Assembly: GCA_029263125.1 (NCBI GenBank)
Contig: JAJCYD010000005.1
Coordinates: 39,720-103,719 of the forward strand
Reading direction: 5' to 3'
DNA length: 64,000 nucleotides
Source: Solirubrobacteraceae bacterium
GTDB lineage: Bacteria; Actinomycetota; Thermoleophilia; Solirubrobacterales; Solirubrobacteraceae
Made by a program: the position numbers and the translations under genes. Under the pieces are notes generated by a model. That model was not told where the DNA came from. It saw only the letters and a program-made list of their open reading frames with translations, and searched no databases. Below, piece after piece: positions 21,421 to 52,754 of this stretch (its first letter is position 1; each line of letters opens with the position of its first letter).

Positions 21421-23076
<1,656 letters not shown>

Positions 23077-23159
23077 GTTGTCGGTAGTCAGATAGTCGGT
23101 CGTCCGCGTTTCTGACTTGAGGGTAGCGCTTCGGCGGACGCAACGTCCGCGCCTGGCTA

Positions 23160-23440
23160 CGGCTTGGGCGGCATTCGCACGCAGGCCATGCAGAAACCGC
23201 CCAGCAGCGGCTCGGGCGAGACCACCACACCGGGCCTGGGCGGGTTTCGCAGACAGGGCATGCAGAAGGCGCCCTGCAGCGGCCGGGACGCAGCCGCCAC
23301 ACCAGCCCTGGGCGCGTTTCGCACACAGACCAGGCAGAAGGCGCCCGGCAGCGGCTGAGGCGAAGCCTCCCACGAGGCTTGGCGGGTTTCGCAGGCAGGC
23401 GATGCAGAAGCCGCCCAGGCTGCGGCGGGCGAACCGTTCG
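23160..23440. repeat. Four imperfect tandem repeats of ~72 bp, each with hairpin-forming arms
   Basis: Unit cores (C)TGGGCGGxTTYGCA-N9-TGCAGAAxCCGCCC at ~23164, 23236, 23308, 23379; spacings 72/72/70 bp read from the sequence. Confidence 0.85.
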
Positions 23441-23445
23441 GCGGG

Positions 23446-23721
23446 CTACGGCAGGTCGACGTGGACCATCTCGACGACCGGCGCGATGTCACTGCCGGCC
23501 TCGATCTGCTGCGCGGCGACCTCGATCGCACCGAACTCGACGCCGCGCGTGAACGTCGCGGAGATGAGGTCGATGATGAACTGGAAATCCTCGTCTCCGG
23601 ACAACGCGAGGCGGTCGCCGATGCGCTGCATGCGGTCGTCCGGAAACAGCCGCGCGAGCTCCTTGGTGATGTCGTCGCGGATGTCGCCGCGCTCGGGTTC
23701 GTCGCTGGGGTCGTCGGTCAT
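23446..23721 (-). CDS. Hypothetical protein (91 aa)
   Basis: MTDDPSDEPERGDIRDDITKELARLFPDDRMQRIGDRLALSGDEDFQFIIDLISATFTRGVEFGAIEVAAQQIEAGSDIAPVVEMVHVDLP. Confidence 0.7.
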   Translation of the reverse strand: MTDDPSDEPERGDIRDDITKELARLFPDDRMQRIGDRLALSGDEDFQFIIDLISATFTRGVEFGAIEVAAQQIEAGSDIAPVVEMVHVDLP

Positions 23722-23768
23722 GCACCCAGCATGCCCTGTCCCCGGCTCGCGTACCATCTGGCACGGCC

Positions 23769-23891
23769 ATGGGAGACATCGGCAAGCCCATTCGCGAGAC
23801 CGAACGGCCAGCTCCGGTGCGGGTTCCGGTACCCGAGCCCCAGCCCGATCGCGAGCCGGCGAAGCCCGAACCCGAACCCGCGAAGACGTGA
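23769..23891 (+). CDS. Small Pro/Glu-rich peptide (40 aa), not in the ORF track
   Basis: Direct translation MGDIGKPIRETERPAPVRVPVPEPQPDREPAKPEPEPAKT*; stop overlaps the next start as GTGA. Confidence 0.65.
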   Translation: MGDIGKPIRETERPAPVRVPVPEPQPDREPAKPEPEPAKT

Positions 23892-24632: not shown

Positions 24633-24953
24633 TTGAAGAGCCTGCACGCAGACGGCCACGCCAGGCCTTCGCTCCCATGCCCGCTGGCCGCAGGCGCCCG
24701 CTCGTCGCCGCCCAGCCCGGCCGCGTCCGTGACATCCCCGCCTCCGGCCGCGCCCGCCGATCCTCCGGTGCGCACGCCGACGAAGACCGCTCCCCCGGTG
24801 CGCGAGCCGACGACGACCGATCCCCCCGTACGCGAGCCGACGAGGATCGATCCGCCCCCACGCGATCCGACGCTGCCGCCGCGCAAGCCCGACGGATCCC
24901 CGGACCGGGACACCAAGCCGCCGCCGAACCCGCCCCGGAAGCCGGCGCCCTGA
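24633..24953 (+). CDS. Proline-rich repeat protein, low confidence
   Basis: ADPPVRTPTKTAPPVREPTTTDPPVREPTRIDPPPRDPTLPPRKP; encoded by ~30-bp tandem repeats; TTG start; competing minus-strand ORF 24464..24916. Confidence 0.35.
   Translation: MKSLHADGHARPSLPCPLAAGARSSPPSPAASVTSPPPAAPADPPVRTPTKTAPPVREPTTTDPPVREPTRIDPPPRDPTLPPRKPDGSPDRDTKPPPNPPRKPAP
24759..24875. repeat. ~30-bp tandem repeat, nearly 4 units
   Basis: GATCCTCCGGTGCGCACGCCGACGAAGACC / GCTCCCCCGGTGCGCGAGCCGACGACGACC / GATCCCCCCGTACGCGAGCCGACGAGGATC / GATCCGCCCCCACGCGATCCGACG. Confidence 0.8.
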
Positions 24954-43375: not shown

Positions 43376-43397
43376 GCAGGCGCTTCCTTCCGTTCGT

Positions 43398-43570
43398 TTC
43401 GGGCGCCTACGGGGTTAGCTGTCGGGCTCGCGCTGAAACGTGCGCTACACCGACCGCCCCGACGACATCGGGTGCGGTTGGCGATTCGCCCCAGGACCGA
43501 TCACGCTTCCGGCCTCCATGGGTCCCCCGTTCCCGGTCGCTCGGAGCGATCCGGGATTCGGCCTTATGTG
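43398..43570 (-). ncRNA. c-di-AMP riboswitch (ydaO/yuaA type) in the leader of the Rpf-like gene
   Basis: Minus-strand GCCGAATCCCGGA...CGGGGGACCCAT...TGGGGCGAATCGCC...GCCCGACAGCTAACCCCGTAGGCG matches recalled ydaO consensus segments in order; boundaries approximate. Confidence 0.88.
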
Positions 43571-43655
43571 AAGCAGCGGGGATAGTAGCCGCTGCGCGGA
43601 TGACACGCGCTGCCGATCGTTCGCAACGTGCGGGAAAAACGTGCTCGACCAGCGC

Positions 43656-52304: not shown

Positions 52305-52754
52305 TCAGCGCTCGAGCTTGCAGGTGTCGATCGCCAACCGCCGGACGAAGCGCACGGTGCGCGGCAGGATTCGCGGGAGCTGGGCGGTGTCGGGGAACCG
52401 CAGGATGCCGTCCTCGGTGCGGATCGCGAAGCTGAAGATCTGAGCCGGCGGCGCCGTGGGGACCGTGACCGCGCCCGATTGCACGAGCCGCAGATCATCG
52501 GTGATGTCGCGCGCCTCGATCGTCTGCTCGCTGGTCAGCGGCAGCGCCGGCGCCCCGTTGCAGCGCACGCTTGTGTCCGAGACGAGCATGTCGAGCTTCG
52601 CGCCCGGCACGCTGCCGGTGCGCTCGACGACGAAGAGATCCGGCGACGGCGTGCCGCAGCCGCCGATCGCGGCCACCGCGGCCGCGACGCCGAGCAGCGT
52701 GGGCGTCTTGCGCATGCGATGCATGCCAAACCCGCCCAGGCGGCGCGCGTTCAC
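52305..52754 (-). CDS. Lipoprotein of unknown function
   Basis: MHRMRKTPTLLGVAAAVAAIGGCGTPSPDLFVVERTGSVPGAKLDMLVSDTSVRCNG; GTG at 52754 overlaps the ggt stop, or ATG at 52724. Confidence 0.7.
   Translation of the reverse strand: MNARRLGGFGMHRMRKTPTLLGVAAAVAAIGGCGTPSPDLFVVERTGSVPGAKLDMLVSDTSVRCNGAPALPLTSEQTIEARDITDDLRLVQSGAVTVPTAPPAQIFSFAIRTEDGILRFPDTAQLPRILPRTVRFVRRLAIDTCKLER
52700..52740. repeat. Diverged single copy of the 72-bp repeat core found at 23160-23440
   Basis: Minus strand GCCTGGGCGGGTTTGGCA-N9-TGCGCAAGACGCCC vs array unit GCCTGGGCGGGTTTCGCA-N9-TGCAGAAGGCGCCC; same arm lengths and N9 loop. Confidence 0.5.

What the first reader, a model, noticed from the sequence alone, without database searches (positions are those of the whole stretch)
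23160..23440. Four-copy ~72-bp tandem repeat with a conserved hairpin core in front of the mutase large-subunit gene
Seen directly: units at about 23164, 23236, 23308 and 23379 (spacings 72, 72, 70 bp). Each has the form CTGGGCGGxTTYGCA-N9-TGCAGAAxCCGCCC, an imperfect stem with a constant 9-nt loop. Unit 3 changes GGCGG to GGCGC on the left arm and has GCGCC on the right arm, consistent with compensatory change. The period is a multiple of 3, so both strands show repeated pseudo-peptides ([16 protein letters not shown]...). The array lies between a minus-strand gene (ends 23446) and the mutase start (23076), so it would be transcribed as structured leader or intergenic RNA. It is not a CRISPR: there are no unique spacers. 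Inference: a REP-like or structured-RNA family of this lineage, possibly acting on mRNA stability or mutase expression.
Basis: partly seen in the sequence, partly recalled or inferred. Interest (0 to 1): 0.68.

Follow-up and report, generated by a model that had tools for sequence, protein, structure and literature searches.

The report
REP-like hairpin repeats at gene ends
The four-copy repeat beside the mutase gene is one cluster of a family of about 80 short hairpin-forming repeats that has multiplied between genes, often near gene ends, in this bacterium and separately in one relative, much like the REP repeats of E. coli and Pseudomonas but without their usual tag sequence or transposase.

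Summary
The array is real: four units at 23162-23420 with spacings 72, 72 and 70 bp. It is not a local oddity. The 41-45 bp palindromic core occurs about 79 times in 37 clusters in this 3.75-Mb Solirubrobacteraceae genome, and 34 of 37 clusters are wholly intergenic. Two forms occur: a dispersed direct doublet (62-bp spacing, inside a repeat of about 180 bp) and local tandem arrays like this one (mostly 71-72 bp). Spacers of different arrays are unrelated in sequence, yet the period is the same. Of 232 genomes of the order, only this one and one of another genus (G009, changed stem, same 18-5-18 layout) are amplified. Within this genome the arms do not covary; between the two genera they do. 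Arrays favour gaps between convergent genes. The window array lies behind the upstream gene's stop and upstream of a conserved, promoter-like mutase leader, so a role as mutase leader RNA is unlikely. Best reading: a new REP-like family without GTAG/CGTC tag or Y1 (RAYT) transposase, with direct rather than inverted doublets, probably acting as 3'-end stem-loops and spreading as a non-autonomous repeat. Transcription and termination are untested.

The parts
23161..23426 (.). Tandem array of four palindromic units, period 72/72/70 bp
   Evidence: TRF score 277; matrix scan
23162..23206 (+). Hairpin unit 1
   Evidence: CM R1 E 8e-9 (C5:62881-62925)
23234..23278 (+). Hairpin unit 2
   Evidence: CM R1 E 4e-9
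23306..23350 (+). Hairpin unit 3 (C-G pair at the variable stem position)
   Evidence: CM R1 E 5e-7
23376..23420 (+). Hairpin unit 4, about 26 bp from the stop codon of the upstream gene
   Evidence: CM R1 E 4e-9
52697..52741 (-). Single dispersed copy; overlaps the start-codon region of a lipoprotein-like ORF
   Evidence: CM R1 E 7e-8 (C5:92416-92460)
23446..23721 (-). Upstream gene, 91 aa, no Pfam match; the array lies behind its stop codon
   Evidence: codon-model gene call; Pfam; syntenic in G006 and G004
21421..23076 (-). Methylmalonyl-CoA mutase large-subunit gene
   Evidence: PF01642 E 8e-219; 88% identical same-genus homologues starting at residue 1
23077..23125 (-). Conserved mutase leader: TAnnnT -10-like hexamer (23120-23125) and CCGACTATC (23091-23099), between array and ATG
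   Evidence: alignment of six species; promoter role is inference

Best explanation
The array is a locally multiplied cluster of a REP-like palindromic repeat. The unit is a palindrome of about 41 bp (18-bp arm, 5-bp loop, 18-bp arm; CTGGGCGGGTT..GCATG-N5-CATGCAGAA.CCGCCCAG). It has spread as a non-autonomous intergenic repeat in this species and, with another stem sequence, in a species of a second genus. Array-type copies sit mostly behind stop codons, often between converging genes. Proposed mechanism (inferred, not shown): transcripts entering the site from either side form a stem-loop near their 3' end, which limits read-through or protects the mRNA end, while insertions upstream of promoters are purged. 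Local arrays arise by tandem duplication of hairpin plus spacer. The copying enzyme is unknown and is not a Y1/RAYT transposase seen in this assembly. In the window the array would act on the 3' end of the 91-aa gene and insulate the mutase promoter behind it. Confidence is about 0.85 for the REP-like family and about 0.4 for the 3'-end role; the figure below is for the whole statement.
For: 42 core hits against 1 control; 79 hairpins in 37 clusters, 34 wholly intergenic, P about 1e-27. Dispersed class A copies at 88-94% identity. Within-array spacers 77% alike, which fits tandem duplication. Independent amplified family with the same 18-5-18 layout in G009 and cross-genus covariation. Pooled array-type and G009 clusters 15 convergent, 11 tandem, 1 divergent against background 16, 57, 34: P 4e-5 and 1e-3. 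Absent from the syntenic gap of two sister species, where a different palindrome sits behind the same gene.
Against: No covariation within the genome, so structure is not visibly maintained copy by copy; some arrays (L096) have lost inner pairing in all copies. No T-run follows the stems, so these are not canonical intrinsic terminators. Class A doublets show no gene-end preference. Most relatives do without the family. No expression data. Gene calls are my own and the placement background is from G000 only.
Confidence: 0.5

Rival explanations
1. A purely selfish non-autonomous mobile palindrome (MITE/REPIN-like) without cellular function; its positions only reflect purging of harmful insertions.
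For: Amplified in only 2 of 232 genomes; dispersed class A copies up to 98% alike over 330 bp including flanks; class A without gene-end preference; a second long palindromic repeat family also spreads in this genome.
Against: Convergent-gap excess also in G009, although tolerance could explain it. No insertion footprint or terminal repeats seen and no candidate transposase found.
Confidence: 0.3
2. A double-stranded DNA binding site (operator or nucleoid-protein site). A protein reads the dyad and spacings of 62, 72 and 102 bp keep neighbouring sites on one face of the helix.
For: Palindrome conserved as sequence, with no covariation within the genome; the right arm is more conserved than the left in arrays (24.4 against 18.8 bits); shared period with unrelated spacers; direct orientation.
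Against: Avoids divergent, promoter-bearing gaps; G009 spacings are irregular, about 115-160 bp; one 30-bp excess is a hexamer expansion (L085).
Confidence: 0.12
3. A cis-acting structured leader RNA or riboregulator of the mutase gene.
For: The array lies 5' of the mutase gene and folds better than shuffled sequence.
Against: About 36 other clusters stand at unrelated genes; absent in sister species at the same place; conserved promoter-like leader lies between array and gene; no Rfam match; no covariation within the genome.
Confidence: 0.03
4. A coding tandem repeat: an N-terminal extension of the mutase or a repeat peptide.
For: The minus-strand frame is open from 23373 into the mutase.
Against: Homologues begin at the ATG at 23076; the family is dispersed and intergenic, with 70, 71 and 62-bp spacings that break frame.
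Confidence: 0.01

Closest known systems
REP/BIME elements, GTAG and CGTC super-families (Di Nocera et al. 2013, PMC3733652)
   Same: Short palindromes in many copies, extragenic, single, paired or clustered; near 3' ends between co-directional and convergent genes; dimers whose spacers may differ in sequence yet keep similar length; clusters reiterated in tandem with flanking DNA.
   Different: No GTAG or CGTC tag enriched beside the stems. Longer imperfect stem (18-bp arms against 5-13 or 8-9 bp). Doublets are direct (head-tail), a type the paper calls absent or rare.
REPINs with RAYT transposases (Bertels and Rainey 2011, PMC3116915)
   Same: The doublet is the common form and has fixed spacing (71 and 110 bp there, 62 and 72 bp here); tandem clusters including flanks.
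   Different: REPIN doublets are inverted (93%); here 29 same, 1 opposite, 12 ambiguous. No Y1 transposase in this genus.
Tandem or hairpin repeats of actinobacteria: MIRU minisatellites and repeated TRIT terminators of mycobacteria (from memory, not tested)
   Same: Intergenic repeats at gene ends in actinobacteria; MIRUs are tandem arrays with a period of similar size.
   Different: No sequence comparison was made. The hairpins here lack a T-run; MIRUs are not known to me as palindromes.

Membership tests
REP (generic repetitive extragenic palindrome) | Short palindrome (about 20-40 bp) in many copies | tested here: met
   About 79 copies of a 41-45 bp palindrome
REP (generic repetitive extragenic palindrome) | Extragenic position | tested here: met
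   34 of 37 clusters wholly intergenic by own gene caller
GTAG/CGTC REP super-families | Unpaired GTAG or CGTC motif at one end of the stem | tested here: not met
   GTAG 1 and 0, CGTC 4 and 8 of 79 flanks, about as expected by chance
REPIN | Two REPs as an inverted doublet | tested here: not met
   29 neighbouring pairs in the same orientation, 1 opposite, 12 ambiguous
REPIN/RAYT system | Cognate RAYT (Y1 transposase, PF01797) in the genome | tested here: not met
   No match in G000 (95% complete) or any of the 7 genomes of the genus; G009 not among the 22 matching family genomes
Intrinsic (Rho-independent) terminator | GC-rich stem followed by a T-run | tested here: not met
   No terminator-like site at 22900-23800; no T-run in the flanks shown
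Structured cis-regulatory RNA | Covariation of paired positions | tested here: inconclusive
   None within the genome; present between two genera, which a DNA dyad could also give
CRISPR array | Near-identical repeats with unique spacers | tested here: not met
   Hairpins diverged and spacers within an array about 77% alike

The most novel reading that the evidence does not exclude
The 71-72 bp period is set by an active process that copies a hairpin plus about 30 bp of whatever DNA lies beside it: a length-measuring duplication, or strict helical phasing imposed by a binding protein, and not a known REP/RAYT reaction. It would explain why about a dozen arrays share the period although their spacers are unrelated.
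Probability: 0.15. Interest if true: 0.65.

Novelty: new variant of a known kind. Interest (0 to 1): 0.42.

Why it matters
REP repeats are usually explained through RAYT transposases and inverted doublets. Here a REP-like family has amplified twice within Solirubrobacteraceae, with different stems but the same 18-5-18 layout, without a detectable Y1 transposase and, in this genome, with direct doublets of fixed spacing. Related genomes with 0-3 copies stand beside genomes with dozens, a clean comparative case for asking what copies RAYT-less palindromes and whether gene-end placement is function or tolerance.

Tried and rejected
A de novo hairpin and 11-mer census of 400 kb each of G000 and G001 found no abundant intergenic family; at about one cluster per 100 kb the family is too sparse and its stems too imperfect for that method. 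A universal terminator hairpin of the clade was dropped, since most relatives have no copies of this family. Terminal inverted repeats or target-site duplications of the class A element were looked for by eye in an alignment of 15 copies; none was evident. Comparison of array spacers with outer flanks, to see which side is duplicated, was mixed: 3' side in L095, 5' side in L070 and L096, most unclear. CRISPR, coding repeat and mutase leader were rejected (see rivals). Literature searches found no description of such repeats in Solirubrobacter or Thermoleophilia, in open-licence papers only.

Full report
Observation. The four units are present at the stated place: TRF gives 23161-23426, period 72, score 277, and the cores are 23162-23206, 23234-23278, 23306-23350 and 23376-23420. 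The array folds better than shuffled sequence on both strands, but single units are only modestly stable.

A genome-wide family. A pattern of the core gives 42 hits in the window's own 3.75-Mb assembly against 1 for the reversed control. A covariance model from 29 copies (R1) and a matrix scan give 79 hairpins in 37 clusters. The consensus is GGCTGGGCGGGTTTnGCATGnCnGnCATGCAGAAnCCGCCCAGCC. With a simple codon-model gene caller, 34 of 37 clusters are wholly intergenic although 87-92% of the DNA is coding.

Two arrangements. Class A is a direct doublet with 61-62 bp spacing inside a dispersed element of about 180 bp: 12 near-full copies at 88-94% identity to the query, mostly in long gaps, with a diverged subtype (L084, L093, L100). 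Class B is the window type: 2-6 hairpins, mostly 71-72 bp apart (exceptions 60, 69, 70, 78, 101, 102). Spacers are about 77% alike within an array but near chance between arrays (0.438 against 0.417 shuffled; a few pairs of arrays are related), so the period is shared without shared spacer sequence. Neighbouring hairpins point the same way: 29 same, 1 opposite, 12 ambiguous. The 62, 72 and 102 bp spacings differ by about whole helical turns; this is suggestive only, and one 30-bp excess is a hexamer expansion (L085).

Sequence or structure. Within this genome there is no covariation. In class B an arm pairs with its own partner no better than with one from another array (0.752 against 0.746), and the right arm is more conserved than the left (24.4 against 18.8 bits). 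Between genera the picture differs. G009, another genus of the family, carries its own amplified family, found with a single-arm pattern (36 hits against 5 control, many on both strands 22 bp apart): CTGGGCGCGAGATGCACG-N5-CGTGCATATCGCGCCCAG, same 18-5-18 layout, altered stem. In the joint alignment 80.9% of cells pair against 74.4% shuffled, with 44 double-change cells against 26 and covariation 0.190 against 0.089 (0.03-0.12 when slid). Caveats: two main clades, few independent events, some rows brought in by a structure-aware model, and a DNA dyad would give the same signal.

Distribution. Model R1 finds 43 matches in G000 and one site each in G001 and G003 among 146 family genomes. The joint model R2 finds 27 matches in G000, 26 in G009 and 1-3 in eight others among 232 genomes of the order (strict filters, rows count both strands). 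This is sporadic amplification. At the window locus, sister species G006 and G004 have the same two genes but no such array; there the gap holds a different palindrome, GTGTCG...CGACAC, behind the stop codon, itself a small repeat family of the genus.

Placement. Class B clusters are 7 convergent, 7 tandem and 1 divergent; G009 clusters are 8, 4 and 0, often 8-60 bp from stops. Background gaps of at least 150 bp in 464 kb are 16, 57 and 34. Pooled, the convergent excess has P 4e-5 and the divergent depletion P 1e-3. The background is from G000 only. Di Nocera et al. describe the same placement for REPs (PMC3733652).

The window locus. Unit 4 is about 26 bp from the stop of a 91-aa gene with no Pfam match. 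Between unit 1 and the mutase ATG lies a leader conserved in six species, with a TAnnnT hexamer and CCGACTATC. The array is therefore most likely upstream of the mutase promoter and in the 3' region of the preceding gene (inference; no transcription data).

Relation to known kinds. It fits generic REP features. It fails the GTAG/CGTC tag, inverted doublets and RAYT (PF01797 absent from the genus, and G009 not among the matches). Fixed doublet spacings and tandem clusters with flanks are known for REPINs (71 and 110 bp; PMC3116915), so a fixed period is not unprecedented. Its combination with unrelated spacers, direct orientation and no RAYT is what sets this family apart.

Mechanism. Shown: dispersed and tandem amplification, intergenic and gene-end placement, palindrome retained across genera. 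Inferred: stem-loops at transcript ends, purging from promoter regions, tandem duplication as origin of arrays, an unidentified copying enzyme. The assembly is a draft of 53 contigs, 95% complete, and the named close relatives are metagenome assemblies, so absence of a transposase is not absolute.

Noticed in passing
L185 and L187 (mutase upstream gap of G006 and G004); G000 sites in L286-L295: A second palindrome family, GTGTCGAAT-N21-ATTCGACAC (39-40 bp), occurs in six of the seven genomes of the genus (10 sites in G000, 8 in G002) with 0 control hits; 7 of 20 sites lie between convergent genes.
   Followed up: partly
L072:4244-4446 and about 18 further places in G000: A third dispersed repeat of about 120-200 bp, itself a long palindrome whose tip (TTATGCAT..GATGCAGAAC) resembles the core of the family studied here; several copies stand near its clusters.
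   Followed up: partly
G009 loci L306-L318: Independently amplified sister family with clusters almost all between convergent genes, spacings about 115-160 bp instead of 72.
   Followed up: yes
23077-23125, minus strand: Mutase leader motif CCGACTATC plus a TAnnnT hexamer conserved in six same-genus species; possible promoter and operator.
   Followed up: no
52697-52741, minus strand: The single copy in the window overlaps the start-codon region of a lipoprotein-like ORF, an unusual position for this family.
   Followed up: no
43388-43573, minus strand: c-di-AMP riboswitch (ydaO/yuaA leader), 64.7 bits.
   Followed up: no
24757-24872: 30-bp tandem repeat, about 3 copies.
   Followed up: no
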